NCBI RefSeq assembly: GCF_010993705.1
Contig: NZ_WOFO01000001.1
Location: forward strand, 834,132 to 898,131
DNA length: 64,000 bases
Direction of reading: 5' to 3'
From: Cyclobacterium sp. SYSU L10401
Lineage (GTDB): Bacteria > Bacteroidota > Bacteroidia > Cytophagales > Cyclobacteriaceae
In this document: positions 9,127 through 60,749 of the stretch, piece by piece
Position numbering within the stretch: the stretch's first letter is position 1
How the letters are laid out: every line of letters starts with the position of its first letter
Notes under the pieces: generated by a model
What the model saw: only the letters and a program-made list of their open reading frames with translations
Databases searched by the model: none
Told to the model about the DNA's origin: nothing
Translations under genes and position numbers: made by a program

Positions 9127-10152
9127 TTAAAATACGATTCCGAAACTGAAGGGGTGTAGCTCAGGACTGAGGGAATTGTGAAACAAGGGATTTAAATCAT
9201 AGGTGGTGAAAAACGTGATGCTTTTAAAGCCAACTTCACCCCGGATGCCGTACCTGAAATTATTCAGGTAGCTTCCTGCGGGTAATTTATCCTTGTTTCG
9301 GGAGGAGCCGCCAATTTCCCGGTATACAAACTTACTTCTGCCTCCAAGCCGGTAGCCGGCATAGGGACCAATACCGATGCGCAGCCCGTTTCTGCCATTG
9401 TCATTGAGTTTGCCAAAATCAAGTTTAAACATGGTTAGGGCGTTTAGGTAGGAGGCGGATATCTTACTCTTAAAGCCGTTGACATCCGTCCTGTTTACCA
9501 TGTTGATGCCATCCTCCGAACCAATGGCCTGGTAGCTGGGATTATCGAGTTTAAAATTGTACCAGCTAATGCCCAAACCAAAATCCCAATAAGCACCTTT
9601 GGTTATTTTTTGACTTGCCATCCAGTGAAAGCCTACATTCCAGCTCCCCCATCCTTTGGGGCTGAAAGCAGATCCGGCTCCGGGGATGGTACCATTTTCA
9701 AAATAGCTGTTGATACCCAGATCTGTATTCAGATATGTTCTGAAAGGGGGATCTTTCTTTTCTTTAGGGCTGGTTTCCATCTTCACTTTGGTCCTGCCAC
9801 CAGTTTCATCTACTATGATCTTATACCTGCCAATGTTAACTTCTGTTTCTCCCACATTTTCATAGATACTTACGATTTCCTTGTTGCCATCTTTTTGCCT
9901 CATCTCGATGACAGTAACTACCCCTTCGCTTTCATTTTCCGGAATGTTGAGTTCTTTAATAATCTGGTTGATATCCATGCTTTTCAAGCGCTCAAAATCC
10001 TCCGGGTTGTCTATCAGAAAAACTACTTTTCCGGATTTTCCAAACTCCACAATAATGCTGTCATTGACAGGCTTCTCTTCTGGAATGACAGGATTTCCAA
10101 ATGCCAGTTGCACAAGGGCCATCAGTAGTATGGCGATTAAATACTTTTTCAT
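9127..10152 (-). CDS. Outer-membrane beta-barrel protein with N-terminal periplasmic domain
   Basis: 341 aa from the ATG at 10152. An upstream in-frame TTG at 10173 would abut the previous gene's stop, but the signal peptide starts cleanly at MKKYLIAILL. After the signal peptide comes an acidic domain of about 120 residues (about 25-145). About eight amphipathic strands follow, rich in Gly, Tyr and Phe, ending in Phe (SFGIVF), which is typical of outer-membrane barrels. The function of neither half is known. It is the third gene of the ECF sigma operon, 21 bp after the anti-sigma-like gene. Confidence 0.75.
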   Translation of the reverse strand: MKKYLIAILLMALVQLAFGNPVIPEEKPVNDSIIVEFGKSGKVVFLIDNPEDFERLKSMDINQIIKELNIPENESEGVVTVIEMRQKDGNKEIVSIYENVGETEVNIGRYKIIVDETGGRTKVKMETSPKEKKDPPFRTYLNTDLGINSYFENGTIPGAGSAFSPKGWGSWNVGFHWMASQKITKGAYWDFGLGISWYNFKLDNPSYQAIGSEDGINMVNRTDVNGFKSKISASYLNALTMFKLDFGKLNDNGRNGLRIGIGPYAGYRLGGRSKFVYREIGGSSRNKDKLPAGSYLNNFRYGIRGEVGFKSITFFTTYDLNPLFHNSLSPELHPFSFGIVF

Positions 10153-10173: not shown

Positions 10174-10932
10174 TTATCTGTTTACTCTCTTTTCTCTTTT
10201 ATTACCCAGGGAGGCGAAAAGGTTGTTTTTGGCATCTTGTAACTCACCAAAACCCTCGTCTACTTTATTGAAAAACCCACCAATTTTATTTTCCAGTCCA
10301 TCTACCAGTTTTTCTTTATCGGGTTGTAAGGCATAGCCTCTGGAGACAATTCTGACCGTGTAATCATCTTCTGTCCCGATCTCTCCTTGCGAAGCTTCTT
10401 CCTGGGCCAGGTCTATATCTGGAACAGGGATGAACTCCTGCCACTCAGGTTCTATTGCTGCAGGAGGGTCAGGCATAAGCTCCTGCTTTCTGGGAGCGGC
10501 GTTTTTGTCTTCAGCCTGCGCAATTAAAGGGCTTTCTTCTGTCGTTTTTTTGGGAAGTAACGGAGTGTTTGCTGAGCTTTTTTGTTCCTTTTCGTGCCGT
10601 ACTACTTGCTCAGGTTCATTGGTCTCAACCTGATCTGTATCATCATCCGTTTCTTCCTGGCTGACATAAGTTTCTTCGGATTGAATGCTTTTATTCATGT
10701 CCTGGGAGAGGGGCTGATTGATCTCAGGCATTTCAAACCTGATTAAGAACCAGCTGAAGCCCAATAACAAAACTGCAGCGGCTGCCCAGCCTTTCCAAAA
10801 GACAATTACCGGCTTTTTCTTCTTTTCCAGCCTGCTTGAAATCTCCTCCCATACCCAATCTTCGGGGACTACCTGATGATCCGATAGCCTTTGACGGATT
10901 CTTTCATCGAGATGATTCTTCTTATCCTCCAT
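10174..10932 (-). CDS. Single-pass membrane anti-sigma-like protein
   Basis: 252 aa. The short cytoplasmic N-terminus (about 1-45) contains Trp-rich VPEDWVWEEISSRL, as in many Bacteroidota anti-sigma-like proteins. One transmembrane helix follows (about 46-63). A long acidic, low-complexity periplasmic region rich in Glu, Gln and Pro (about 70-200) leads to a C-terminal segment of basic and amphipathic character. The start overlaps the end of the sigma factor gene by 11 bp, so the two are coupled. It probably sequesters the sigma factor at the membrane; this is inferred from position and topology, not from a recognised anti-sigma domain. Confidence 0.7.
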   Translation of the reverse strand: MEDKKNHLDERIRQRLSDHQVVPEDWVWEEISSRLEKKKKPVIVFWKGWAAAAVLLLGFSWFLIRFEMPEINQPLSQDMNKSIQSEETYVSQEETDDDTDQVETNEPEQVVRHEKEQKSSANTPLLPKKTTEESPLIAQAEDKNAAPRKQELMPDPPAAIEPEWQEFIPVPDIDLAQEEASQGEIGTEDDYTVRIVSRGYALQPDKEKLVDGLENKIGGFFNKVDEGFGELQDAKNNLFASLGNKREKRVNR

Positions 10933-11491
10933 TGTTCTTCTCTTTTTGTTGATTTGGTTTCAGCTTTTGCTGAAGTATTGCTCTTGACCTGCTTAGTTGG
11001 GATTTGGACGTGTTTTCCGAAATGCCCAGCATTTCTGATATTTCCCTGTGGGAGTACCCTTCAATGGCATAAAGGTTAAAAACCGTTCTGTAGCCCAGAG
11101 GAAGAGCAGCTATTACCTGAAGCAGTTCTTCTGTATCAAAATCTCCAATTTGTGGATTGAACTCAACCATTTCCGTTTGCGTATCCCAATCTACCTCCAT
11201 CCGTAATTTTTGGTTTTTCCTGAGCGTGAGCAAGGCCTGTGTTACTATGATTCGTTTCATCCATCCTTCAAAACTTCCAGCATTTTTAAATTGCGATAAA
11301 TTTTCAAATATTTTCATAAACCCCTCTACCAAAACGTCTTGTGCCAAATCATGATCCTTGATGTACCTAAGGGATATGGCTAGAAATTTACCGGAATACT
11401 GTTCATACAATTCCCTGCAGGCTAATCTTTCACCTTTTAAGCAAGCTTCGATCAAAGCGGTTTCTTCCGTAAATCTGTTTTTGGCTGGCAT
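10922..11491 (-). CDS. ECF-type RNA polymerase sigma-70 factor
   Basis: 189 aa. Region 2 is at about 20-90 (ELYEQYSGKFLAISLRYIKD, then AQDVLVEGFMKIFENL). Region 4 is at about 115-170, with the helix-turn-helix around YSHREISEMLGISENTSKSQ. It is the first gene of a four-gene minus-strand operon with an anti-sigma-like membrane protein, an outer-membrane barrel and a DUF4097-like protein. It therefore probably controls an envelope response and perhaps its own operon. A 14-bp palindrome sits 27 bp upstream of the start. Confidence 0.93.
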   Translation of the reverse strand: MPAKNRFTEETALIEACLKGERLACRELYEQYSGKFLAISLRYIKDHDLAQDVLVEGFMKIFENLSQFKNAGSFEGWMKRIIVTQALLTLRKNQKLRMEVDWDTQTEMVEFNPQIGDFDTEELLQVIAALPLGYRTVFNLYAIEGYSHREISEMLGISENTSKSQLSRSRAILQQKLKPNQQKEKNNGG

Positions 11492-13690: not shown

Positions 13691-15589
13691 TTATTCCATA
13701 AAATACCTTTCCTGAAATTGGCTTCTTGACAGGCTGTCCGCCGTGGATTGCCTGTGATCATTGATACAATTCAAACATAGCAGACCATCTTCATTGAATA
13801 CCCAATGGTGTCTACTGCTAATATCTCTCGATTTATAGCCATGTTGATTCAGCGTGTTTTTCAAAATGGGCAATAAAGACCTATCCAGGACAAAAGGTTT
13901 ATTCATTGGCAGGTAGAGTGTCTGATTCAATTCCTGCATCCGAAACTTCGCTGGTTTGGGAAAAGTCAATATTTTGCTGAATACCAATACACTGTCCTCC
14001 ATTTGCAGGTTGTAGTTGACAGAAGATGCATTTTTTAAGGCATCCTCCCGGGTTGAACCTTTGGAGGAAAAACGTTGCTCCACATAAATTTTATCAGCAT
14101 CATGTCCCCTTATCTGAAGGTGCACCAATCCCCAGTCTTTATTTTCCAACAAACCATCTTCTCCTTTGACCAAAAGCGTTTCCTCTGGCACTTCCAATTC
14201 CTGATTTACGGAATGGATTGCCCCAGACTTAAACTGGCTGATGATTTTGGGTGCCTGAAACGAACAGATCAATATACTCAAAATCCATATTCCAAACATG
14301 ACAAAACCAAACCTGCCATCTATCAGGTTTCTTTTGATTAGCACACTCAGGCCCAGGAGTACCAAAGCGATGCTGGGGATCAATGCGATAACAGCAGCCG
14401 CTATTGCCAACCAAAATGGTAAAAGTTCTCCAATCGCTTCAATGGGAAACCCATCCATGACATAATTCCAACCACTTTGACTCAATATTTCAGAATATAA
14501 TCCAAGGAAACCAAGAGGTATTATGATCAGGATCATGCCCAGAAAAAATATGATGAGTCCGAAGACGACACGGACCACCTCCAGTAAAAATCTCCCAAAT
14601 GGACCAAGGGCTTTGCCAAGACCATTTATGACCATGCCAAGAAATCTAAATGGAGCAAGTACAACGGACTTGGCTGCAGATTCCTTTCTGGTGGATTCGC
14701 TGGAGAGGTTTTGCTGTAGGGTGTTTTCAATGTTACTCAGGGTGATGGCGCCTCCTTTCATTTCTATCCTTTCTGTGATGGATTTGGCCATGGGGGTAAT
14801 GATCCAGAGGATCAGGTAGAGTACAAAGCCAGAGCCACCGGCAAATATCAAACCCACAAATGCCAGCCTCATCCAGATAACATCAATATTGAAATAAGCA
14901 GCCAGGCCACTTCCTACGCCACCCATCACCCTGTCATCGGGGTTTCTGTATAGTTTTTTAATGTTTTTGTCTTCCGGCCTTTCATCCGATACCGGTAGAA
15001 TGATCCAAAGCAGGATATAGGCGGCGACTGTCCACCACCCGATGGCCATTCCCAAATGCAACCGGTCAGAAAAGAATGGTATGGGTAGGTTGTTAAAGCT
15101 AAGGCCACCACTGAAGACCAGCAATATGGCAATCAACCTGGTCCACAGGGGATCAATGGAAAGGTAGTTGGCGAATCCGGCACAAACACCACCCAGAATT
15201 TTTGTATGTACGAGTCGGGTTAGTTTTTTATAGCCTTTTCCGGAGTTTTGATTGGGAGGGGTTATGTACTTGTAGAAATCATTATGCCCTTCCTCCGATT
15301 TGTTTCCTTCCTGCATGTCTTGCTCCACAGCCTTAAAATCTGCTATGGTTCCCATTTTATCAATCAGGTTGCTCACATTTTCTGCAGTGATGACCTGCTT
15401 GTTGTTCTTCAGGTTGCTGAGAAAAATTTCAGCAATCCTGTTTTCTATGTCCGTAATGATTTCCTGATTGTCCTCATATAAGGAGAAATGCTGGTTGATG
15501 GCATCCAGATAATGCTTTAGCGAGGTATAACCATCCTCTTCAATGTGAAATAGTATCCCGCTGATATTTATACTTATTGTCTTCTTCAT
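13691..15589 (-). CDS. Membrane protein with two PspC domains
   Basis: 632 aa. An N-terminal cytoplasmic region (about 1-125) is followed by two PspC-type domains: about 130-205 (with GGVCAGFANYLSIDPLWTRL) and about 215-285 (with GGVGSGLAAYFNIDVIWMRL). Each contains paired transmembrane helices. Several further hydrophobic segments lie at about 335-470, and a C-terminal soluble domain of about 150 residues may face the periplasm. PspC proteins act in envelope-stress signalling in other bacteria. It lies 51 bp downstream of a PadR regulator, a recurring pairing in Bacteroidota, so the two probably form an operon. Confidence 0.88.
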   Translation of the reverse strand: MKKTISINISGILFHIEEDGYTSLKHYLDAINQHFSLYEDNQEIITDIENRIAEIFLSNLKNNKQVITAENVSNLIDKMGTIADFKAVEQDMQEGNKSEEGHNDFYKYITPPNQNSGKGYKKLTRLVHTKILGGVCAGFANYLSIDPLWTRLIAILLVFSGGLSFNNLPIPFFSDRLHLGMAIGWWTVAAYILLWIILPVSDERPEDKNIKKLYRNPDDRVMGGVGSGLAAYFNIDVIWMRLAFVGLIFAGGSGFVLYLILWIITPMAKSITERIEMKGGAITLSNIENTLQQNLSSESTRKESAAKSVVLAPFRFLGMVINGLGKALGPFGRFLLEVVRVVFGLIIFFLGMILIIIPLGFLGLYSEILSQSGWNYVMDGFPIEAIGELLPFWLAIAAAVIALIPSIALVLLGLSVLIKRNLIDGRFGFVMFGIWILSILICSFQAPKIISQFKSGAIHSVNQELEVPEETLLVKGEDGLLENKDWGLVHLQIRGHDADKIYVEQRFSSKGSTREDALKNASSVNYNLQMEDSVLVFSKILTFPKPAKFRMQELNQTLYLPMNKPFVLDRSLLPILKNTLNQHGYKSRDISSRHHWVFNEDGLLCLNCINDHRQSTADSLSRSQFQERYFME

Positions 15590-15640: not shown

Positions 15641-15979
15641 CTATTGGTTTTTTGGTTTTTTGAGAATTTGATTGACGGAGTTGTCCAGGTCCAGCCAGGT
15701 TTGATCGAGCTCTTTCAAAAATTCCTTTCCTTCCGGGGTGATGGAATAGTATTTTCTAGGGGGGCCGGTTTCGGATTCTACCCATTTATAGCTGGCTAGT
15801 CCGGAAGTTCTTAACCTGTTTAGAAGGGGATACAAGGTTCCTTCAACAACGATTAGCTGCGCACCTTTGAGTTCATCTATCATATCTGTGGCATAGACTT
15901 CACCCCTGGCAATAATATGTAAAATACAGAATTCCAATATTCCTTTCCGCATTTGGGTTTGGGTGTTTGAAGCTTTCAT
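15641..15979 (-). CDS. PadR family transcriptional regulator
   Basis: 112 aa, a complete small PadR protein. Winged helix-turn-helix with the family landmarks: RKGILEFCILHIIARGEVYA (helix 1-2), DELKGAQLIVVEGTLYPLLNRL (recognition helix region) and the wing GPPRKYYSITPEGKEFL, then a C-terminal dimerisation helix. Usually a repressor released by a ligand or stress cue. It is the first gene of the PadR-PspC pair and probably regulates it. It is divergent from porV2. Confidence 0.93.
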   Translation of the reverse strand: MKASNTQTQMRKGILEFCILHIIARGEVYATDMIDELKGAQLIVVEGTLYPLLNRLRTSGLASYKWVESETGPPRKYYSITPEGKEFLKELDQTWLDLDNSVNQILKKPKNQ

Positions 15980-16372: not shown

Positions 16373-17488
16373 ATGATTTCCAGGGCTAATTTTTGTGTGT
16401 TGGTAGGGCTGTTGCTGTTTGGATCTGTCAAGGGACAGGGAATTGCCCCAAAATATTCCAATGAATTCATGAATATTGGGATAGGTGCCAGGGGATTGGG
16501 CATGGCAGGTGCCCAGGTAGCTGCTGTGAGGGATGTCACTGCTGCTTATTGGAATCCTGCTGGTTTGATTGGAGTGGCCCATGAGCATGAGTTTGCCCTT
16601 ATGCATGCGGAGTACTTTGCCGGTATTGCCAAATTTGATTTTGCAGCTTATACTACCAATATACAAGAGGACAACCAGATCGCTATATCTTTGATCCGTT
16701 TTGGGGTAGATGATATTCCGGACACCCGCTTTTTATATGATGCTAACGGAGCCCTGAATTATAACAACATTCAATTTTTTAATGCGGCAGATTATGCCCT
16801 TCTGCTCAGTTATGCCCGGGATGTGAGCGATAATTTTAAGTTGGGGGTCAATACCAAGATCATTCATAGAAATGTAGGGAAATTTGCCAAAGCCTGGGGT
16901 TTTGGTTTGGACTTTGGTGCCATTTACCTGTGGAATGGCTGGCGTCTGGGCTTAATGGCCCGGGATGTGACGACTACCTTCAATGCCTGGTCTCACAATG
17001 CAGATTTGGTAAGAGAGATTTATGACCAGACACAGAACGAAATCCCCATTAACAGCATTGAACTGACGCTCCCCAGAGCGATTTTTGGCCTTGCCAAGGT
17101 TTTTGAAATTACTTCTGATATCAACCTTCTTGCCACCATGGATTTCGATTTCACCTTCGATGGGCAGCGCAATGCGCTATTTGGAAGCCGTATTTTCAAT
17201 ATAGATCCGAAGATAGGAGCTGAGCTGGATTATAAAAGCACGGCTTATTTCCGCTTAGGGGCCGGTAATTTCCAAAGATTAACCAATTTTGACGGAAGTA
17301 AGTATTCCAGCTTGCAACCCGGTTTTGGTTTGGGGTTTAAAGCCAGTGAAAAGGTATTGATTGACTATGCATTGACAGATATTGGAAGCATTTCTGAAAC
17401 ACCATTTTCTCATGTTTTTAGTGTTAAAGTTTCATTGAATCCTTTAAAAGAGGATTTTAGGATTTATGGGGGTTGGGAAAACAATTAG
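16373..17488 (+). CDS. PorV2-like outer-membrane protein (PorV/PorQ family)
   Basis: 371 aa with a signal peptide (about 1-21, ending GSVKG). The start of the mature protein has the family hallmark: GIGARGLGMAGAQVA, then TAAYWNPAGL, as in FadL-like PorV/PorQ barrels. PorV shuttles T9SS cargo to the PorU sortase at the outer membrane. This homologue sits directly before a PorU-like sortase, matching the PorV2/PorU2 pair seen in many Bacteroidota. The stop lies 7 bp before the chosen start of that gene, so co-expression is near certain. It is not necessarily the core PorV. Confidence 0.85.
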   Translation: MISRANFCVLVGLLLFGSVKGQGIAPKYSNEFMNIGIGARGLGMAGAQVAAVRDVTAAYWNPAGLIGVAHEHEFALMHAEYFAGIAKFDFAAYTTNIQEDNQIAISLIRFGVDDIPDTRFLYDANGALNYNNIQFFNAADYALLLSYARDVSDNFKLGVNTKIIHRNVGKFAKAWGFGLDFGAIYLWNGWRLGLMARDVTTTFNAWSHNADLVREIYDQTQNEIPINSIELTLPRAIFGLAKVFEITSDINLLATMDFDFTFDGQRNALFGSRIFNIDPKIGAELDYKSTAYFRLGAGNFQRLTNFDGSKYSSLQPGFGLGFKASEKVLIDYALTDIGSISETPFSHVFSVKVSLNPLKEDFRIYGGWENN

Positions 17489-17495
17489 TCAGAGA

Positions 17496-20400
17496 ATGTT
17501 AAGAGTATTTATTTTATTGATTTTCTATGGTGTTAGCTCATCTGTTTTTGGCCAGGCAAGCCAATGGGTGAAATATGACCAGGATTATTTTAAAATCCCA
17601 ACGGCGACAGATGGTGTTTTCCGATTGAGCTATACCACTTTTTCAGCATCTGGCTTGCCATTGGAATCTTTGGATCCCAGAGAAATACAGGTTTTTCACC
17701 GGGGCGAAGAGGTAGCAGTTTACATCCACGGGGAGGAGGATGGCGTTTTTGACCAGGGAGATTACCTGGAATTTATTGGCAAAAGGAATGACGGCACTTT
17801 GGATTCCGCCCTATATGGCAGCCCGGATTTACTACCCAACCCCTTCTACAATACCCATAATGATACCACTGCCTTTTTCTTAACCATTTCCCCCGGTCAA
17901 AGAGGTAAGCGGATGGACACCGCATCCTTACCAGGCGGAGCGGAAGAAATTTCCGGATACCAAAAATCCGCTTTGGAACATTTTGCAGAACAGTATTCCC
18001 TGGGTAAAATTTATTTTCCCGGGGTGAGATTATCCAGCTACGATGAGGGACAAGGCTGGACATCCTCCATTGTCACCAAGGGATCCAGTCGGTCAGTGAA
18101 TTTTTCAAATCTTGGAGAAGTCATAGGGGATAAGTTACCGACACTTGAAATCGGACTTGTGGGTCGGTCAGAAACCCCTCACCTGACCTCTGTTAGGGTC
18201 GGGCCTTCCGCAGGCGCACTCCGGGAGCTGGGACAATATGCATTTGACGACTTTCAAAACAGGGTTTTTCTGGAAAACCTTCGCCCGACTGATTTTTCAA
18301 CTGAAGGCCAACTTTTTGTAAGCATCACCTCTCTCGGTGTAAATAATGCCGTGGATAATATTTCGATCAATTATTGCAGGGTGGTTTACCGATCGAGAGG
18401 TTTATCAGGTGATTTTGAGAAAGAGGTCTTAGCATTTGAGGAGGCGGATAAAATGCTAACCATACCAGGGGTAAGCAGGGATTATGTCGCCTACGATATC
18501 AAAGATGCCAATAATCCGGTTAAATATGGTTTAAATCTGATGGAGGATGAGCTTCAGATTCCCACCGGGAGTCAGGGAAGAGCGGGGACTGTATTGTTAC
18601 AAAATCTCAATCAGGTGAAAGAAATCAATGTATTGCAACGGGTAAGGTTCAGAAATCTCTTGGCGCAAAATGCCAATTTTCTGATCATTTCACATGAGAG
18701 ATTAAGGCGACCGGCCAGTAATTATGGAGACCCGGTGGGTGCATATGCCGCCTACAGGGCTACCCCGGCAGGAGGGGGATTTGACACTTTGACAGTGAAT
18801 GTACAGCAGTTATACGATCAATTTTCTTTTGGAGAAAAGTCCCCACTGGGCATCCGGAATTTTTTAAAGGAATACAATGATCGATTCAGGCCGGAATACC
18901 TGCTGTTGGTTGGAAGGGCATATGGAATGATCAATACGAGAAGGCAGGCAGGGGTAACGTATTTTTACAGAAATAATCCTTCCTTATTTGATTTTCAGGA
19001 ACTGGTACCGGCATATGGTTATCCCTATTCTGACAACCGATTTGTGGTGGGATTGGATCCCGAGGATCCATTGGGACAAAACATAAGTATTGGCCGGATC
19101 CCTGCCAGGACCCCGGATGATGTGGGTGCCTATTTGGATAAGATTAAGGAAAAAGATGCCATGGGAGTTTCTGAACCCTGGCAAAAAAATATTGTCCATT
19201 TGAGTGGAGGCAGATCGGCTTTTGAATTGGAACGGTTTTTTAATTTTCTAAATGGATTCAAAGCGGTAGCCGAAGATGTTTATCTGGGTGGAAATGTGCA
19301 AACGATAAGGAAGAGGTCAAATGAATCTACAGAATTGATCAATATTTCAGATGAAATCAATGATGGGGTGGGTTTGGTGACATTCTTTGGCCATGCCGCT
19401 CCCTCGACCACGGATATTGATATTGGATTTGCGAGTGTCAATGAAATGGGTTATCGCAATGAAGGAAAATACCCGGTATTACTTTTAAACGGCTGCGATG
19501 CAGGGAATGCCTATGGGGATGCCTATACTTTTGGTGAAGACTGGATAGTCACACCAGAAAGGGGGGCATCCAACTTTCTGGCTCATGCTGATATTGGAAT
19601 AGATGTCTACCTCAGGAGGTATAGCGAATCCTTTTATGCCAAGGCTTTTGCAGATTCATCCTTGATTTACCAAAGCCTGGGTAAGGTAAAGGTGGAGGCC
19701 GAGCGACAGCTTTATTCCAGGTACGGAGGCTCGGAAGTAAACCAATCCCATGCCAATCAAATCATACTTTTGGGTGATCCTGCATCCCGCATGTTTCCAG
19801 CCAATAGGGCAGATTATGCCATTTTGCAGGAAGATGTGGTCCTGCAGGGAATAGGGGGGCAACCTTTAAACTCCCTGGCTGATTCGCTCGAGTTGTCGCT
19901 GCTGATCAGGAATTTGGGACGGGTGGATTTGGATTCTGTAAGTTTGGATATTGAGAGGCAATTGCCTGATGGAAGCGTCCTCAGCATTGAATCAGGAATG
20001 ATTACCCCGGTTTTCAGACAGGACACTTTGGTGATTTCCATCCCCAATACGGGAATCAGTTCGTTTGGCGACAATATTTTCACCATAAACATCAATGATG
20101 ACCGGGAGATTGATGAAATGACCTTTTCAAACAATTCCGTTTCCGCTTCCTTTTTTGTTCCCTTAAGCGGCACTTTGAACCTCTTTCCATTGGAGTTTGG
20201 TATCGTTAACGAAACGGAGGTATCCTTGATAGCGCAGATCCCAGGCTTTCTTCAGGAGGCCAGAAACCTGGTCATCCAATTGGATACAACGGCTGATTTT
20301 TCCAGCTCCAGGAGGAGAGAAGTAAGGATAACCACTGAGAATCTGGCCAGGTGGGAGGTAGCGCTTTTTGATAATATTCCAGCAAGGGATTCGCTTACCT

Positions 20401-22523
20401 TTTACTGGCGGACAAGGTTTTTATCCCCCAGAGAAGGTGAGGACGCTTCCTGGAATACCAATAGTTTCTCCTATATCCATAATGGTCCTGAAGGATGGAC
20501 CCAAAGACAATTGCCTCAGTTTTCAGGAAACCAGCTGGATAATATACAGCTCAATTTGACCGATGGAGAATGGCAATTTCAGGAGACGGCCTTGAATATT
20601 GATATTTTCACTTTTGGAGCAGATACGGAAGGATATGATGTAGAGAATACCCAAATCATGTTGAATGGGGTGTCTTATATCCTGGATACATTTAATCGCT
20701 TTTGCCCCAATGGGTCCCTGGGTTTGATGGCTTTTGACCACAGGACCTTAGAGCCTTATTTGCCCGTTCCTCTGGTTACTATTGATGTTTTGGATTCTCG
20801 TTCTTGTGGTCGGGTGCCGCAGGTGATACAGAGTATTCGAAATGCGAGTATCACAGGTCCGAATGGGACCATGTTATTGGATTTTGTGGATGGTATGAAA
20901 ACGGATGATTATGTCGTAATTTTTTCTGTAGGGAATGTTACTTTTTCGGACTGGCCGGATAAGGCCTATTTAAAAATGAAGGAATTGGGAGCAAATGAGG
21001 CTACCCTGCGGAATCTTCAAACAGGAGATCCCTATATCCTATTTGGGAGGAAGGGAATGAAACCGGGTGAGGCAATAGAAGTAGTTCCCGATATCAATGG
21101 GGCGTCTCCAAGGGAGTCCCAGGTGATTTCTTTTGAAACTGATATCACGGGATATTTTCCTTCTGGTAAAATTCTTTCTCCAAGGATTGGGCCTGCCGCT
21201 GAATGGATTAGTTTTTTCAACGAAATCCAAAGTAAAAATCTTTTTGAAAGTGAAAGAAGTAGCATGGGCATAGTCGGGGTAACGCAAGATGGAGGAGAGG
21301 TGCCCTTACTCAGCGACCTGGATGATGAACGGGCGGATCTCTCCCGGTTTGATGCAGAAAGCTATCCCTACCTGAGATTAAGGTATGCCCTGGATGACAT
21401 GGAGACCAATGCCCTGCCTCAATTGGCAAAGTGGCAGGTGGACTATACGGGCGTGCCGGAAGGGGTTTTGGTTTTAAAAGATAAAAGAACATCATCCCAG
21501 CTATTGGAAGGAGAATCGGATGAGCTTGAATTTGAATTTGTAAATATATCCAAGTACGATTTTACAGATTCCATTACCATTGATTATACCTTTCAAAACA
21601 TTGATCAAAAAAGAATCGAGCAGGCAAGCAAAAAAATTCCGGCGGTAAAAGCCGGTGCGGTAGCATCCTTCACTTTGGGTTTCAATTCCGAGGGTAGGCC
21701 GGGGGATAATTCCCTCAATGTTTTTGCCAACCCCAGAATAATACCTGAGCAACTTTACCGAAATAATGTTCTTGACCTTCCCGGTTTTTTTAAAGTAAAA
21801 GGAGATGATCTCAATCCCATACTGGAGGTTAATTTTGATGGTAGGAATATCATGAATGGGGACATTGTTTCTCCCACTGTAGTCATCTCAGCCCTGGTAA
21901 AGGATGAAAATAAAATAGCCCTGAAAAAGGATACGCTGGGTATGGAACTGATGATCCGGAAGCCTTGTGAAGGCTGTGATTTTGAAAAAATAAGTTTCAG
22001 CAACCCGGAAGTGAAATGGTTTGAAGCTACCGAAAACTCGGATTTTAAAATTGAATATCAACCGGGGCCTTTGGAGGATGGCCTCTATACTTTGCGGATC
22101 AACGCCAGCGATGCTTCCGGTAATGAAGCGGGGTCCGATCCCTATGAAGTGAGTTTTGAGGTAATCAATGAGAGTCAGATCACCCACTTTTACCCTTACC
22201 CCAATCCGTTCAGCAACAATGTGCGCTTTGTATTTACGCTCACAGGCTCAGAGATACCCGATGAGATAAAGATTCAGATCATGACCATCAGCGGCAAGGT
22301 GGTCAAAGAGATATTTCAGGATGAATTGGGCCCGGTAACGATTGGGAATAACATTTCTGCCTATGCCTGGGATGGGAAAGATGAATTTGGAGATCAATTG
22401 GCCAATGGCGTTTACATTTACAGGGTCCTGGTCCGGAAAAATGGTCAATTTATGGAGCTGCGCAGCAGTGCAGGGGACAAGGCCTTCAAAAAAGGGTATG
22501 GTAAAATGTACCTGTTAAGGTAG
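17496..22523 (+). CDS. PorU2-like T9SS sortase, C25 (gingipain-fold) peptidase
   Basis: About 1675 aa from the ATG at 17496; an upstream ATG at 17466 overlaps porV2 by 23 bp, but the signal peptide starts at MLRVFILLIF. The order is N-terminal beta domains, a C25 cysteine-peptidase domain (about 460-770), a long beta-rich region, and a C-terminal Ig-like sorting domain beginning near FYPYPNPF and ending in ANGVYIYRV. The catalytic dyad is present: His633 in FGHA and Cys667 in LNGCDAG, 34 residues apart as in gingipains. It would cleave or transfer sorting domains of T9SS cargo at the cell surface. It is longer than classical PorU (usually about 1100-1300 aa) and its specific cargo is unknown. 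Confidence 0.87.
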   Translation: MLRVFILLIFYGVSSSVFGQASQWVKYDQDYFKIPTATDGVFRLSYTTFSASGLPLESLDPREIQVFHRGEEVAVYIHGEEDGVFDQGDYLEFIGKRNDGTLDSALYGSPDLLPNPFYNTHNDTTAFFLTISPGQRGKRMDTASLPGGAEEISGYQKSALEHFAEQYSLGKIYFPGVRLSSYDEGQGWTSSIVTKGSSRSVNFSNLGEVIGDKLPTLEIGLVGRSETPHLTSVRVGPSAGALRELGQYAFDDFQNRVFLENLRPTDFSTEGQLFVSITSLGVNNAVDNISINYCRVVYRSRGLSGDFEKEVLAFEEADKMLTIPGVSRDYVAYDIKDANNPVKYGLNLMEDELQIPTGSQGRAGTVLLQNLNQVKEINVLQRVRFRNLLAQNANFLIISHERLRRPASNYGDPVGAYAAYRATPAGGGFDTLTVNVQQLYDQFSFGEKSPLGIRNFLKEYNDRFRPEYLLLVGRAYGMINTRRQAGVTYFYRNNPSLFDFQELVPAYGYPYSDNRFVVGLDPEDPLGQNISIGRIPARTPDDVGAYLDKIKEKDAMGVSEPWQKNIVHLSGGRSAFELERFFNFLNGFKAVAEDVYLGGNVQTIRKRSNESTELINISDEINDGVGLVTFFGHAAPSTTDIDIGFASVNEMGYRNEGKYPVLLLNGCDAGNAYGDAYTFGEDWIVTPERGASNFLAHADIGIDVYLRRYSESFYAKAFADSSLIYQSLGKVKVEAERQLYSRYGGSEVNQSHANQIILLGDPASRMFPANRADYAILQEDVVLQGIGGQPLNSLADSLELSLLIRNLGRVDLDSVSLDIERQLPDGSVLSIESGMITPVFRQDTLVISIPNTGISSFGDNIFTININDDREIDEMTFSNNSVSASFFVPLSGTLNLFPLEFGIVNETEVSLIAQIPGFLQEARNLVIQLDTTADFSSSRRREVRITTENLARWEVALFDNIPARDSLTFYWRTRFLSPREGEDASWNTNSFSYIHNGPEGWTQRQLPQFSGNQLDNIQLNLTDGEWQFQETALNIDIFTFGADTEGYDVENTQIMLNGVSYILDTFNRFCPNGSLGLMAFDHRTLEPYLPVPLVTIDVLDSRSCGRVPQVIQSIRNASITGPNGTMLLDFVDGMKTDDYVVIFSVGNVTFSDWPDKAYLKMKELGANEATLRNLQTGDPYILFGRKGMKPGEAIEVVPDINGASPRESQVISFETDITGYFPSGKILSPRIGPAAEWISFFNEIQSKNLFESERSSMGIVGVTQDGGEVPLLSDLDDERADLSRFDAESYPYLRLRYALDDMETNALPQLAKWQVDYTGVPEGVLVLKDKRTSSQLLEGESDELEFEFVNISKYDFTDSITIDYTFQNIDQKRIEQASKKIPAVKAGAVASFTLGFNSEGRPGDNSLNVFANPRIIPEQLYRNNVLDLPGFFKVKGDDLNPILEVNFDGRNIMNGDIVSPTVVISALVKDENKIALKKDTLGMELMIRKPCEGCDFEKISFSNPEVKWFEATENSDFKIEYQPGPLEDGLYTLRINASDASGNEAGSDPYEVSFEVINESQITHFYPYPNPFSNNVRFVFTLTGSEIPDEIKIQIMTISGKVVKEIFQDELGPVTIGNNISAYAWDGKDEFGDQLANGVYIYRVLVRKNGQFMELRSSAGDKAFKKGYGKMYLLR

Positions 22524-32480: not shown

Positions 32481-32926
32481 TGTTGGAGGGGTGCTAATTC
32501 AGGAACAAATATGTCATTTTAAATTGAAAAATCAATTTTGGCATTGATTATGGATTTCCATCTTTGCCAATGCAGCTTAAATCACCCTTATTCTTGTTTG
32601 GCATAAAATTATTTCTTCTTAAAACATTATTAATTATAGATTAATTATAATCTATTATTTGAGGTTCTTTCCTCAAAAAATGTATTTCATCGTCTATTTC
32701 GAAAGGCTTAGGGGAAAGTGTGGTTTTTTTGTGGAAATAATTTTTCTTCCGAATGTTGCATCAAAGAATAAAATTCTGTTTTTTATAAATAAAACATGCT
32801 TAATCAGAAAAAATTATTTATGTATTTGGAATACATAATTTAATATTTGTAAAAATGAAAGACAGAAAATTATTGATCAATTCCTTTTTTATGAATTAAA
32901 TGTTACCTAACCAAAAGAAAACTGAA
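32481..32926. other. Palindrome-rich intergenic region fabH / lyase
   Basis: 446 bp, strongly AT-rich, divergent between fabH and the T9SS lyase gene, with no credible ORF. It holds three inverted repeats: ATAGATTA/TAATCTAT (32636-32643 with 32648-32655), TTTGAGG/CCTCAAA (32658-32664 with 32671-32677), and the 9-bp-arm palindrome at 32818-32838. It also contains a half-site ATGTATTT at 32680-32687. Most likely a regulated promoter region. Confidence 0.6.
32818..32838. promoter_or_regulatory. Palindromic operator-like site upstream of lyase
   Basis: TTATGTATT-TGG-AATACATAA, perfect 9-bp arms. The inner 17 bp (32820-32836) differ at only two central bases from the palindrome at 49799-49815 near the start of the EPS operon. 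Eight bases after the inner palindrome comes TATTTGTAAAAATG; its last 12 bases (32846-32857) also occur just after the -7 position of the EPS promoter. Probable binding site of an unidentified dimeric regulator. Confidence 0.6.
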
Positions 32927-35503
32927 ATGAATCGGACAGTAAACAAAGTAATAGCTACCCAAAATAGGTTTATAAAAGGAGCGATTGTAAGTGCTTTTTT
33001 AATCTTTTTTACGACTATAGTAATTAATGGTGAAACTATTGGTGCAAAAAATACTTATAATGATATTGAACATAGATTTGATTTACAAGATCAAGATACT
33101 GTTCCTTTAAATGATTTGGGAGAAGAATTATGGAAGGCTGGACATGAAAGCGGTACACAAGAGGAGTGGTTACATAGTGGTGGTGGGGGAGAGTTTAATA
33201 GCAATAGGGGAGATAGTTATGTAAGCACAGAAGTGGCAAGGTCAGGAGAACATTCCCTGAAAATGTCCATTAATACCACAAATGGTGGAGGTCATGCAAC
33301 AAGAAATTACCGATGGGCAGAGATTGCCGACCATAAAGATTTAATTTTTACCCAATATGTTTACTTTCCGAATAGAATCGATTTTGATAGGAATAACAAT
33401 TGGTTTAACCTGATTCAGACTAAAGGTGTGAAGTTTGCTCCGGGAGGAGCGGGAACAGGTCCGGATCAGATCAATTTACCTCATTTTGTGCTGGGGCTGG
33501 AAGTTCGTGGGGGTGCTGGAAGTGGCGGAGCCAACTATTTAAGTCTGGCTGACTTGCAAAAATTTTGGGGAAGCGAGCCTGATGTAATCTGGAAAGCCCC
33601 GGCAGGAATAGACCTACCTGTCAAGAAGTGGGTTAAAATTCAAATGCGCATCATTCAGGATAGGGGAGACAAGGGTAGGGTACTTGTTTGGCAGGATGAT
33701 ACCTTGATTATTGATACAAAATTTAGAAATACCCTTCGACCGGAGGTAGACATTAATATGTATAGTATCAATGCCTACGCCGATAAAACCTATCCCAATG
33801 TTACCAATATTTACCTCGACGATCTTTCCATCAACCTACCAGGATCATCGGTAGAGGAAAAGGAACCCGTTTCAATTTTGGAGCCGGCAGTATCCATCAT
33901 CGTACCCCAAAACGAATTCAGAATTGTCAAAGGAGAACCATTGACAATTGAAACCGAGGTATCTGCCGACCCCAGCCTTGATGTTGATCTGGTAGAGTTT
34001 TTTATCAATGGGGAATGGGTAGGGGATATAAAAAACTCCCCATATAATTTTAATTTGACTGGTCTTTCAGAAGGGGAATATCAGCTTAAGGCAAAGGTTT
34101 GGGATTCCCGGAGAGTATTTTCTGAATCCAAAGAGGTAAGTTTTATGGTTTTGCCAAAGGAAGAAGAAAATGCAAAACAATCCGAACCTATTCCTGATGA
34201 AACGGGGGAACTTCCTTCCAATTCAGTTTTAAACTATAGCTTTGGAAGTAACCAATCAGTAGTATATGATGAAATGGTTTATTTTCCCGATCCAGTAGCT
34301 GAATTTATACTGGGGACTTCCTATAAGTACAGCAATGCTGAGGCAAGTAATATAAAGCTTTTCCAGCAGGAAAGAAACTCTCCTGATCTCAGGCTAAAGA
34401 TCCCTGTCAAAAATGGGAATTATTCGGTTGTCACCTATCATAATGAACTCTGGTTTGGTAGGAAGGGCCCGGCTGCCAAATCCGGGCAAAGGGTATTTAC
34501 CATTCAAATGGAGGGTAACTCCGTTCAAAAAGATTTGGATCTTTTTAGGGAAAACAATAACAAACCCATTCGATTGACATTCAATGATATTGAGGTAGTT
34601 GATGGATTTTTGGATATCAGGATGATTGCTTCAGTTAACCGGGCCACAATATCTGGACTTTCTATAATTCCTGAAGAGCTGAATGAAAAACCCTTGCCAG
34701 CGGAAAATGAATTTCAAATGGCATTAAATGTGGGAGGTAGGGAATCAGCAATCTATGAAGATTACGAATTTGAAGCAGAAATAGGTGCTTTTGATTTTTT
34801 TAATTCTCCCACTACCTATTCTGATGATGCATCCAGTAAAGATGTCTTGTTTCAAACCGAGCGCCACGGACTAAATTTAACCTATAAAATCCCCGTACCC
34901 AATGGCAAGTATTTGGTTAAAACCTACCACAATGAACTTTGGTTTGGGAAAAAGGGCCCAGCGGCCACTGCAGGCAATAGGGTATTTAGCATTTCTTTAG
35001 AGGGGAAGGTAGTGAAAAACGATCTGGATCTTTTCTTGCAAAGTAACAACCAGCCCCTGGAATTAATCTTTGAAGAAGTAGAGGTATTGGATGGAGTCCT
35101 GGACCTTGAATTGGAAGCATCTTCCAACAGAGCTACCCTTTCGGGTTTGTCCATCACGGGGTTTGCTCTCAGCTCAGGTTCAAATCTAAGGATTCAACAA
35201 ACTTCGTCAGATCTGCAGGATTTTGAGGAGGACAAAAAGAACATTTCAGCAGCGTCTGTTTCTTTATATCCCAATCCTGCTGTTGACCAGATTTACCTTG
35301 AGGGAAACGGCCAGGAATTTCAACAATTTATTATACATGATAGTTTTGGAAACTTTTTGTATGAATTTGATCCGAAAGAACTCAAAAGCGGCAATAATCG
35401 GTATCTTCTATCACTTTCAGGTATAAAGGAGGGGATCTACCTAATCAGTATTATTCAAAAGGATAATACGGTAGAGAGGTTGCGTTTTCTCATTGGATCT
35501 TGA
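32927..35503 (+). CDS. T9SS-exported polysaccharide lyase-like protein with two malectin-like domains
   Basis: 858 aa from the ATG at 32927 (an upstream ATG at 32900 adds 9 residues). Signal anchor about 17-40. A jelly-roll domain resembling heparin lyase I-like polysaccharide lyases lies at about 65-305 (NNNWFNLIQTKG, WVKIQMRI, IYLDDLSI). An Ig-like domain follows (about 320-405). Two malectin-like carbohydrate-binding domains (about 430-580 and 595-755) share YHNELWFGxKGPAA and RVF. A type A sorting domain (about 780-858; SLYPNPAVDQ) ends the protein. It faces the EPS operon and shares its palindrome, so its substrate may be the polymer made by that operon. The lyase family and active site are not certain. 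Confidence 0.75.
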   Translation: MNRTVNKVIATQNRFIKGAIVSAFLIFFTTIVINGETIGAKNTYNDIEHRFDLQDQDTVPLNDLGEELWKAGHESGTQEEWLHSGGGGEFNSNRGDSYVSTEVARSGEHSLKMSINTTNGGGHATRNYRWAEIADHKDLIFTQYVYFPNRIDFDRNNNWFNLIQTKGVKFAPGGAGTGPDQINLPHFVLGLEVRGGAGSGGANYLSLADLQKFWGSEPDVIWKAPAGIDLPVKKWVKIQMRIIQDRGDKGRVLVWQDDTLIIDTKFRNTLRPEVDINMYSINAYADKTYPNVTNIYLDDLSINLPGSSVEEKEPVSILEPAVSIIVPQNEFRIVKGEPLTIETEVSADPSLDVDLVEFFINGEWVGDIKNSPYNFNLTGLSEGEYQLKAKVWDSRRVFSESKEVSFMVLPKEEENAKQSEPIPDETGELPSNSVLNYSFGSNQSVVYDEMVYFPDPVAEFILGTSYKYSNAEASNIKLFQQERNSPDLRLKIPVKNGNYSVVTYHNELWFGRKGPAAKSGQRVFTIQMEGNSVQKDLDLFRENNNKPIRLTFNDIEVVDGFLDIRMIASVNRATISGLSIIPEELNEKPLPAENEFQMALNVGGRESAIYEDYEFEAEIGAFDFFNSPTTYSDDASSKDVLFQTERHGLNLTYKIPVPNGKYLVKTYHNELWFGKKGPAATAGNRVFSISLEGKVVKNDLDLFLQSNNQPLELIFEEVEVLDGVLDLELEASSNRATLSGLSITGFALSSGSNLRIQQTSSDLQDFEEDKKNISAASVSLYPNPAVDQIYLEGNGQEFQQFIIHDSFGNFLYEFDPKELKSGNNRYLLSLSGIKEGIYLISIIQKDNTVERLRFLIGS

Positions 35504-49798: not shown

Positions 49799-49815
49799 AT
49801 GTATTTAAAATACAT
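49799..49815. promoter_or_regulatory. 17-bp palindrome at the EPS operon start
   Basis: ATGTATTT-A-AAATACAT, perfect 8-bp arms around one base. It covers the expected transcription start of the EPS promoter (minus strand). It matches the site upstream of the lyase gene (32820-32836) at 15 of 17 bases. It overlaps a second inverted repeat, TACATTT/AAATGTA (49811-49817 with 49822-49828). A site in this position would usually act as a repressor operator. Confidence 0.6.
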
Positions 49816-49820
49816 TTTTA

Positions 49821-49851
49821 CAAATGTAAAAAATATTTAATCAAACTCAAA
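49821..49851 (-). promoter_or_regulatory. Bacteroidota-type promoter of the EPS operon
   Basis: On the minus strand: TTTG (49851-49848), 19 bp, TACATTTG (49828-49821). This fits the Bacteroidota primary-sigma consensus of a -33 TTTG and a -7 TAnnTTTG with 19-20 bp spacing. Transcription would start near 49814, leaving an untranslated leader of about 270 nt before the wzc ATG. Confidence 0.6.
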
Positions 49852-59867: not shown

Positions 59868-60371
59868 TTACTTTAATACCTCCAAAAATTTTCGGGACAC
59901 TTTTACCAGCATGCTTTGATTGATACTCGGTATCCGGATAATAAAGTAATCCTGATTTGATTTTTGGATACATTCGCCTTCAAAACCCTGCAAGGCCCCC
60001 CCCAAAATCCGTACCTGTTCCCCTTTCTCAATATCATCGGTTTCTACCTCTACAGCTACCCCTGTTTCAATTAACCGTTGGATGGTGTCGATTTCACTTT
60101 GTTGGACCATGGCATGCTCCCCTGAAAAATTGATAAATTTAACCGCTCCGCTGATTTGTAAAGCCTCCCAAAGCCTTTCTTTACTGGTGTAGACAAATAG
60201 ATACCCGTTAAACAAGGGTCGCTGTACTTTTTTCTTTCGATCACTCCACTGCCTTATTTCTTCTATCATAGGAAGGTAAACGCTGGTGCCCTTTTCTAGT
60301 AGCCTTTGGGCAACTTTTTTTTCTGCTCTTGGCGCAGTGTACATTACATACCAGTTACATTTTTCCGTCAT
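59868..60371 (-). CDS. UpxY-like (NusG-type) transcription antiterminator
   Basis: 167 aa from the ATG at 60371; ATGs at 60374 and further upstream exist, but the NGN domain starts at NWYVMYTAPRAEKKV. Two domains: NGN (about 1-100) and a C-terminal KOW-like part (about 115-167; GEQVRILGGALQGFEGE). Specialised NusG paralogues of this type act on long polysaccharide operons, normally encoded as the first gene of the operon they control. Here the gene is divergent from manC-fcl-gmd and points toward the GH15 gene, so its target cannot be assigned by position. Confidence 0.85.
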   Translation of the reverse strand: MTEKCNWYVMYTAPRAEKKVAQRLLEKGTSVYLPMIEEIRQWSDRKKKVQRPLFNGYLFVYTSKERLWEALQISGAVKFINFSGEHAMVQQSEIDTIQRLIETGVAVEVETDDIEKGEQVRILGGALQGFEGECIQKSNQDYFIIRIPSINQSMLVKVSRKFLEVLK

Positions 60372-60749
60372 CATATACAGGGTTAAAATCCGAAAGTACC
60401 GAATAATTTGGGTAACCTTCAATACCTGGTTTTTGTAATTTTTTATATTTTTTTTCCCAACCTCATCTGAATAAGCATTGAAATATATTTTTATGCTTTT
60501 TAAATAAAAAATAATGGATTTAAAATAAAACTTTACAGTTTTGATTTTTTTATTTACTTTTGAGAATTAACTCTAAAAAACTGAACCTGAAGCCTAACTG
60601 ACAATGAAACCCTGATTTTATTCAGACATTTTTAATATTTCAAATTAATTGGATTGGTAGGAGTAAGAAGCTTGGGAAATTTTAAAATGAGGACATTTTG
60701 TGGCTTATGGCAGTTTTATTTTTGTAATTAAACAGCGAAAATCGAAATC
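60372..60749. other. Divergent control region UpxY-like / manC
   Basis: 378 bp, AT-rich, no ORF resembling a protein. A second TAnnTTTG match (TACTTTTG, 60555-60562) has no -33 partner at normal spacing; a better promoter lies at 60697-60724. Long leaders in front of manC would be suitable targets for an antiterminator. Confidence 0.45.
60697..60724 (+). promoter_or_regulatory. Candidate manC promoter
   Basis: TTTG (60697-60700), 16 bp, TATTTTTG (60717-60724). The boxes match the Bacteroidota consensus exactly but the spacer is 3-4 bp shorter than usual. The manC ATG follows 25 bp later. Confidence 0.45.

What the first reader, a model, noticed from the sequence alone, without database searches (positions are those of the whole stretch)
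32818..32857. Palindrome upstream of the surface lyase gene is shared with the EPS operon
The 17-mer at 32820-32836 (ATGTATTTGGAATACAT) and the 17-mer at 49799-49815 (ATGTATTTAAAATACAT) agree at 15 of 17 positions and are both palindromic. They lie 17 kb apart at opposite ends of the EPS block. In addition, TTTGTAAAAATG (gene-sense strand) follows the -7 region in both, at 32846-32857 here and at 49824-49813 (minus strand) there. Two independent matches in two control regions point to one regulator that co-ordinates synthesis of a polysaccharide and a T9SS-exported lyase/lectin likely to act on it. I know of no described regulator with this site, and none is encoded next to it.
Basis: partly seen in the sequence, partly recalled or inferred. 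Interest (0 to 1): 0.75.

Follow-up and report, generated by a model that had tools for sequence, protein, structure and literature searches.

The report
Operator of a bacterial slime-polysaccharide regulon
A short palindromic DNA switch sits on the promoters of genes that build, export and probably cut the polysaccharide slime in Cyclobacterium and related bacteria, which suggests that one still unidentified regulator controls them together.

Summary
The two palindromes are the only exact ATGTATTnnnAATACAT sites in the 5.9-Mb genome (0.05-0.08 expected). Comparison across Cyclobacterium and its family reveals a regulon. The EPS site belongs to a compact module: a sigma-A-type promoter (TTG-N19/20-TAnnTTTG), 5 nt, then ATGTATTTnAAATACAT at about +2 to +18 (inferred). 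This module precedes Wzc of EPS cluster 1, two initiating sugar transferases of a second EPS cluster, and a response-regulator/BNR_4 pair. It occurs in 12/12 Cyclobacterium genomes (44 sites, reversed control 0) and in 8 genomes of four related genera (23 sites, control 0, all before such genes). The lyase palindrome has another layout, upstream of a weak -7 box, but is kept before 7/7 lyase orthologues (1-3 mismatches). Best reading: operator of one dedicated regulator, probably a repressor; its identity is unknown. The 17-bp core fits the published NsrR (Rrf2) consensus, but none of 26 Rrf2 genes examined carries it, and no NO gene was recognised under a site. Lrp, PadR and an RNA hairpin were tested and not supported. 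A UpxY-type antiterminator in the window is not linked to the motif. New regulon of a known kind.

The parts
32820..32836 (.). Operator-like palindrome 1 (ATGTATTTGGAATACAT) upstream of the lyase gene, over the inferred -33/spacer region
   Evidence: kept before 7 of 7 lyase orthologues
32842..32849 (+). Possible imperfect -7 box of the lyase promoter (AATATTTG)
   Evidence: sequence; ATTTGTAAAA partly kept in orthologues; inference
32900..35503 (+). Lyase/lectin gene: Polysacc_lyase PF14099, Big_7, Malectin, T9SS sorting tail
   Evidence: Pfam; TIGR04183
35563..49544 (-). EPS cluster 1 (glycosyltransferases, deacetylase, Polysacc_synt flippase-like protein, Wzc-like chain-length/kinase); likely Wzc start ATG at 49544
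49799..49815 (.). Operator palindrome 2 (ATGTATTTAAAATACAT), about +2 to +18 of the EPS promoter (inferred)
   Evidence: orthologues
49816..49820 (-). 5-nt spacer between -7 box and palindrome; predicted transcription start at 49816
   Evidence: -12 to -5 position of TAnnTTTG in F. psychrophilum from PMC9723704 (passages)
49821..49828 (-). -7 box TACATTTG (consensus TAnnTTTG) of the EPS promoter
49848..49851 (-). -33 element TTTG, 19 nt upstream of the -7 box
   Evidence: sequence; TTG at 19-20 nt in 45 of 66 module sites

Best explanation
ATGTATTTnAAATACAT is the operator of one dedicated DNA-binding regulator, most likely a dimeric repressor, that controls a polysaccharide regulon in Cyclobacterium and at least four related Cyclobacteriaceae genera. 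Shown here: the site is rare, conserved, and sits in front of EPS genes far more than chance allows; at most targets it is fused in a fixed register to a sigma-A-type promoter (TTG-N19/20-TAnnTTTG-N5-palindrome). Inferred: it covers about +2 to +18; when bound, the regulator blocks open-complex formation or promoter escape at the EPS promoters, and blocks the -33/spacer region at the lyase promoter; when its signal arrives, synthesis (initiating transferases, Wzc), export (Wza) and the secreted lyase/lectin are switched on together. A weaker half-site about 21 bp downstream at several promoters, judged by eye, suggests cooperative binding of two dimers. The regulator is not identified.
For: Only 2 exact sites in the genome, both here (0.05-0.08 expected). 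The module TANNTTTGNNAAAATGTATTTNNAATACAT with up to 3 mismatches gives 90 matches in 42 of 295 family genomes against 7 for the reversed control. All 12 Cyclobacterium genomes have it (44 sites, control 0), and 8 genomes of four other genera have 2-4 sites each (23 sites, control 0). Targets of the 44: 12 sugar transferase 2, 12 the response-regulator/BNR_4 pair, 10 sugar transferase 1, 6 Wzc, 2 glycosyltransferase clusters, 1 a malectin-kelch-T9SS protein, 1 an unassigned gene. All 23 of the others precede sugar transferases, Wza, Wzc, a polysaccharide deacetylase or the response regulator, the last cut by a contig end in one case. Wzc promoter module 92% identical pairwise in 6 orthologues against 45% in the 200 bp upstream. 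Among 98 palindrome contexts (up to 2 mismatches, strand-resolved) in loci found without enforcing spacing, 25 have a perfect TAnnTTTG within 25 nt upstream, and in 24 of these the distance is 5 nt.
Against: No regulator was found, no transcription start was mapped, and repression is inferred from position only. The lyase palindrome has a different layout, and its orthologues carry up to 3 mismatches (p up to 0.05 singly; aligned palindrome 77% identical against 54% overall, with 14 of 357 windows higher). The strict register is tighter than simple occlusion needs. 4 of the 17 own-genome sites with up to 2 mismatches lie inside genes. G008 keeps only half the site at Wzc. The second half-site is weak and its search gave a mixed list (30 matches against 3 control over 12 genomes, several not at recognised targets).
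Confidence: 0.72

Rival explanations
1. The regulator is an Rrf2-family (NsrR-like) Fe-S protein whose operator class has been kept but whose regulon has shifted from nitric-oxide detoxification to exopolysaccharide, so EPS would respond to NO, redox state or iron-sulphur status.
For: The published NsrR consensus gATGyAT-(N5)-ATrCATc (PMC1274295, passages) contains the 17-bp core exactly, including the odd centre; that paper also reports predicted tandem NsrR sites overlapping the B. subtilis hmp promoter. The genome has 3 Rrf2 proteins over cut-off, and one Rrf2 group (next to what looks by eye like a PAPS-reductase gene) is present in 8 of 8 motif-positive genomes tested.
Against: The outer g and c of the consensus are not met. 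None of 26 Rrf2 genes examined, of 28 over cut-off in 11 genomes, has the palindrome within 4 mismatches in about 350 bp upstream, including one beside what looks by eye like a haemoglobin gene. No gene recognised as NO-related was seen under the 17 own-genome sites, though not every neighbour was annotated. The consistent Rrf2 group also occurs in 1 of 3 motif-negative genomes (G012).
Confidence: 0.12
2. The palindrome with its downstream flank is a promoter-proximal loading element for the UpxY-type NusG paralogue encoded at 59868-60422, which then carries RNA polymerase through the long EPS operons.
For: NF033644 UpxY at 160 bits against a cut-off of 100; the gene lies 10 kb from the EPS promoter and is syntenic in G003; the palindrome would be in the 5' leader of the EPS transcript; a fixed register suits a factor that meets RNA polymerase early.
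Against: The lyase palindrome is probably not transcribed. No UpxY match outside this window and G003 was found in held Cyclobacteriaceae loci of at least 5 kb, though only a small part of those genomes was held. The lyase reads as a single gene with no evident need for antitermination.
Confidence: 0.07
3. The palindrome acts as a 5'-terminal RNA hairpin that stabilises the transcripts or is bound as RNA.
For: Position at +2 would leave one unpaired 5' nucleotide; fixed spacing; predicted energies of -2.3 to -3.7 kcal/mol for four leaders of about 38 nt.
Against: Among 32 distinct sites, 28 of 40 one-sided changes break the pair (12 keep it as a wobble) and only 2 of 3 two-sided changes keep it; the response-regulator leader folds into a different hairpin; the lyase site lies upstream of its likely -7 box.
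Confidence: 0.05
4. The sites are chance similarities of AT-rich promoter DNA.
For: The palindrome is AT-rich, and 22 further family genomes give 23 scattered hits; 9 of the 16 of these that were fetched lie inside genes.
Against: Reversed-pattern controls, conservation, and target coherence.
Confidence: 0.02

Closest known systems
NsrR (Rrf2 family) regulon of proteobacteria and Bacillus
   Same: Operator core ATGyAT-N5-ATrCAT; a repressor; predicted sites can overlap promoters (PMC1274295, passages seen)
   Different: Targets here are polysaccharide genes; no site at the Rrf2 genes examined and no NO-related target recognised
UpxY/RfaH-type control of capsule and EPS operons
   Same: Dedicated control of polysaccharide operons in Bacteroidota (recalled); a UpxY-family gene is in the window
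   Different: UpxY works on elongation in the leader (recalled); here a palindrome is tied to the promoter and also occurs at a lyase gene in another layout
Invertible capsule promoters of Bacteroides (recalled)
   Same: Palindromic or inverted elements at polysaccharide promoters
   Different: At the two window sites there is one palindrome each and only two exact copies in the genome; at sugar transferase 2 a degenerate second palindrome does lie 90 bp upstream
Bacteroidota sigma-A promoters (TAnnTTTG)
   Same: The -7 box is standard (PMC9723704, passages); TTG at 19-20 nt here
   Different: The operator fused 5 nt downstream is an addition

Membership tests
NsrR/Rrf2 operator and regulon | Operator consensus gATGyAT-N5-ATrCATc | tested here: inconclusive
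   17-bp core matches exactly; outer g and c do not
NsrR/Rrf2 operator and regulon | NO-detoxification genes in the regulon | tested here: inconclusive
   All 17 own-genome sites with up to 2 mismatches were located; no neighbour was recognised as NO-related, but not all neighbours were annotated and NO genes were not searched for
NsrR/Rrf2 operator and regulon | Site at the regulator gene | tested here: not met
   0 of 26 Rrf2 genes examined (of 28 over cut-off in 11 genomes) with a site within 4 mismatches in about 350 bp upstream
NsrR/Rrf2 operator and regulon | Binding by an Fe-S Rrf2 protein | not testable with these tools
   needs protein
Lrp/AsnC autoregulated regulon | Conserved site upstream of the regulator | tested here: not met
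   Site with 2-3 mismatches in 9 of 9 Cyclobacterium genomes tested, where the whole promoter is nearly identical; in 8 of 8 other motif-positive genomes the best match has 3-5 mismatches, the 3-mismatch ones at another position
PadR regulon (ATGT-N8-ACAT, recalled) | Half-site spacing and site at the padR promoter | tested here: not met
   Spacing is N9; the one PadR gene found (15641-15979) has no match within 3 mismatches upstream
UpxY antiterminator family (window protein 59868-60422) | NCBIfam NF033644 above cut-off | tested here: met
   160.2 bits against 100
UpxY antiterminator family (window protein 59868-60422) | Link between UpxY and this palindrome | tested here: inconclusive
   No UpxY in the held loci of other motif-positive genera, but most of those genomes was not held
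Bacteroidota sigma-A promoter | TAnnTTTG with TTG 19-20 nt upstream | tested here: met
   66 distinct contexts with perfect -7 box 5 nt from the palindrome; TTG at 19-20 nt in 45 of 66
Structured RNA leader | Compensatory base changes | tested here: not met
   2 pair-keeping double changes against 28 pair-breaking single changes
Invertible polysaccharide promoter | Inverted copies on both sides of the promoter | tested here: inconclusive
   One palindrome at each window site; at sugar transferase 2 a 3-mismatch palindrome 90 bp upstream could flank the promoter

The most novel reading that the evidence does not exclude
A gas- or redox-sensing Rrf2-type repressor with an unchanged NsrR-class operator has been rewired in one Cyclobacteriaceae lineage from nitric-oxide detoxification to the whole EPS programme, with its operator locked in a fixed register at +2 of most target promoters, so that slime synthesis, export and the T9SS lyase answer to NO, redox or Fe-S status.
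Probability: 0.12. Interest if true: 0.75.

Novelty: new member of a known kind. Interest (0 to 1): 0.52.

Why it matters
The top listings of seven searches of the open literature held here showed no paper describing a regulator or operator for EPS clusters in Cyclobacteriaceae. This gives a precise, testable regulon: a defined operator, its position on the promoter, its targets in two EPS clusters, and a link between making a polysaccharide and secreting a T9SS lyase/lectin that may act on it. The DNA site can be used directly as bait to find the regulator.

Tried and rejected
Lrp/AsnC as regulator: a 2-mismatch palindrome lies about 50 bp upstream of an Lrp gene. In Cyclobacterium the whole promoter is nearly identical anyway, and in the other motif-positive genera the site is not kept in place. 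PadR: one gene found in the genome, in the window, no site upstream. Rrf2: three genes over cut-off in this genome, no site at any of the 26 examined of 28. RNA hairpin: no compensation. UpxY: family membership met, link to the motif not shown; a weak 3-mismatch site at 60514-60530 upstream of it is poorly kept in G003. Motif in other Bacteroidia: 395 genomes of the class gave only the own genome plus two single hits; that draw held 9 genomes of the family, own included, and none of the 8 other motif-positive ones. Exact palindromes in three other family genomes (G014, G015, G017) lie within or at the start of reading frames. The second half-site search gave a mixed list.

Ascertainment and dropped rows: the pattern enforces the 5-nt spacing, so the 66 of 68 is partly built in, and one search left out 18 loci judged to be chance hits (16 scattered family hits and 2 class hits). 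The figure without enforcement is 24 of 25, and it includes related orthologues. The conservation figure for Wzc leaves out G008, whose site is broken. Of the 23 scattered hits, 16 were fetched and 7 were not; none is counted as a regulon member.

Full report
Observation. In the 5,899,386-base genome the pattern ATGTATTnnnAATACAT has exactly two places, both in this window, and its reversed control has none. Order-0, -1 and -2 models trained on 288 kb of the same genome expect 0.08, 0.05 and 0.08 sites. The 12-mer TTTGTAAAAATG also occurs exactly twice in the window, but in different geometry: in the EPS promoter it overlaps the palindrome, and at the lyase it follows it with a 9-base gap.

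Organism.

Targets in this genome. The EPS site lies upstream of a Wzc-like chain-length/tyrosine-kinase gene (likely start 49544), at the head of a 14-kb EPS block. The lyase gene encodes a polysaccharide-lyase domain, Big_7, malectin and a T9SS sorting tail. One-mismatch sites lie before an initiating sugar transferase (74 kb from the lyase site, 91 kb from the EPS site), before a single-domain response regulator followed by a BNR_4 protein, and before a DRL oxidoreductase. A two-mismatch site lies before a second sugar transferase, which is followed by Wza and Wzc genes. Further two-mismatch sites precede a malectin-kelch gene, and a gene followed by a third Wzc paralogue. With up to 2 mismatches there are 17 sites against 2 in the control. 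All 17 were identified from the list and inspected: 13 are intergenic and 4 lie inside genes.

Conservation. A full or nearly full lyase orthologue is found in 7 of 12 Cyclobacterium genomes, and the palindrome precedes all 7, with 1, 2, 1, 3, 2, 2 and 3 mismatches. First-order resamplings of 300 bp upstream (1000 each) give p from below 0.001 to 0.05. The aligned lyase palindrome is 77% identical pairwise against 54% overall; 14 of 357 windows of the alignment score higher. Wzc orthologues (7 genomes) keep the site within 2 mismatches in 6; in G008 the -7 box and left arm remain and the right arm is broken. In those 6 the block TACATTTG-N5-palindrome is 92% identical, against 45% for the 200 bp upstream and 59% for the 120 bp downstream.

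Promoter module. In the EPS-type sites the palindrome follows TAnnTTTG by 5 nt. In loci obtained without enforcing spacing, 98 strand-resolved palindrome contexts with up to 2 mismatches were examined; 25 have a perfect TAnnTTTG within 25 nt upstream, 24 of them at 5 nt. Over the loci held, with 18 judged-chance loci left out, it is 66 of 68, partly by construction. TTG lies 19-20 nt upstream of TAnnTTTG in 45 of 66. In Flavobacterium psychrophilum the sigma-A box TAnnTTTG spans -12 to -5 (PMC9723704, passages), so the palindrome would cover about +2 to +18. At the lyase the palindrome lies upstream of an imperfect -7 box, over the inferred -33/spacer region. Both positions suit a repressor; this is inference. 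At several promoters (for example sugar transferase 2 and the response regulator in several genera) a weaker ATGnnTTTnAAA half-site lies about 21 bp downstream; this was judged by eye.

Regulon across the family. The module pattern with up to 3 mismatches was run on 295 Cyclobacteriaceae genomes: 90 matches in 42 genomes, control 7. The 12 Cyclobacterium genomes hold 44: sugar transferase 2 in 12, response regulator/BNR_4 in 12, sugar transferase 1 in 10, Wzc in 6, glycosyltransferase clusters in 2, a malectin-kelch-T9SS gene in 1, an unassigned gene in 1. Eight genomes of four further genera hold 23, all in front of sugar transferases, Wza, Wzc, a polysaccharide deacetylase or the response regulator. 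The other 22 genomes have 23 scattered hits; 9 of the 16 fetched lie inside genes, 7 are intergenic. In 395 genomes drawn from the class, a stricter form of the module occurred only in the own genome and in two single hits, one intergenic and one inside a gene; that draw held few family members. Within these samples the regulon is therefore restricted to part of the Cyclobacteriaceae.

Regulator. Not identified. The published NsrR consensus gATGyAT-(N5)-ATrCATc (PMC1274295, passages) contains the 17-bp core, which makes an Rrf2 protein the best-named lead. But none of 26 Rrf2 genes examined (28 over cut-off in 11 genomes) has the site, and no NO-related gene was recognised under a site, with annotation of neighbours incomplete. 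Lrp, PadR and RNA-level explanations were tested and not supported. The window encodes a UpxY-family antiterminator that may act on the same operon, but its link to the palindrome is not shown.

Literature. Searches on Cyclobacterium EPS promoters, Bacteroidetes EPS repressors with palindromes, Bacteroidetes promoters with operators, Rrf2 with EPS, Cyclobacteriaceae regulons, UpxY leaders, and flavobacterial EPS operators showed nothing that describes this site. Two of them had no hits; of the others only the top 8 to 20 titles were seen, out of 28 to 1,764 papers. Only open-access papers were searched. Two papers were seen in passages; the rest as listings only.

Noticed in passing
window 59868-60422 (-): UpxY-family transcription antiterminator (NF033644, 160 bits), a NusG paralogue 10 kb from the EPS promoter; syntenic in G003.
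   Followed up: partly
window 15641-15979 (-) and 13691-15589 (-): The one PadR regulator found in the genome (E up to 0.001), next to a PspC-domain protein gene.
   Followed up: partly
window 10922-11491 (-): ECF-type sigma factor gene.
   Followed up: no
window 16373-22523 (+): Weakly PorV-like protein followed by a very large C25 peptidase gene (PorU-like by recall), that is possible T9SS parts close to the EPS block.
   Followed up: no
L028:8297-10322: Single-domain response regulator plus BNR_4 protein (weak, below cut-off, similarity to an alpha-L-rhamnosidase model); as widely conserved a target of the module as sugar transferase 2.
   Followed up: partly
L229:4482-5295: A degenerate site with a strong second half-site precedes two tandem paralogous small proteins (94 and 88 aa) of unknown function.
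   Followed up: no
L025:9712-9728 and 9802-9818: Two neighbouring palindromes 90 bp apart before sugar transferase 2, the first one degenerate (3 mismatches); they could flank the promoter.
   Followed up: no
L271:1492-1908: Rrf2 gene beside what looks by eye like a PAPS-reductase gene, present in all 8 motif-positive genomes tested and in 1 of 3 motif-negative ones.
   Followed up: partly
L029:9938-9954: One-mismatch palindrome before a DRL oxidoreductase gene, kept in G002, G007, G009 and G010, without the TAnnTTTG module.
   Followed up: partly
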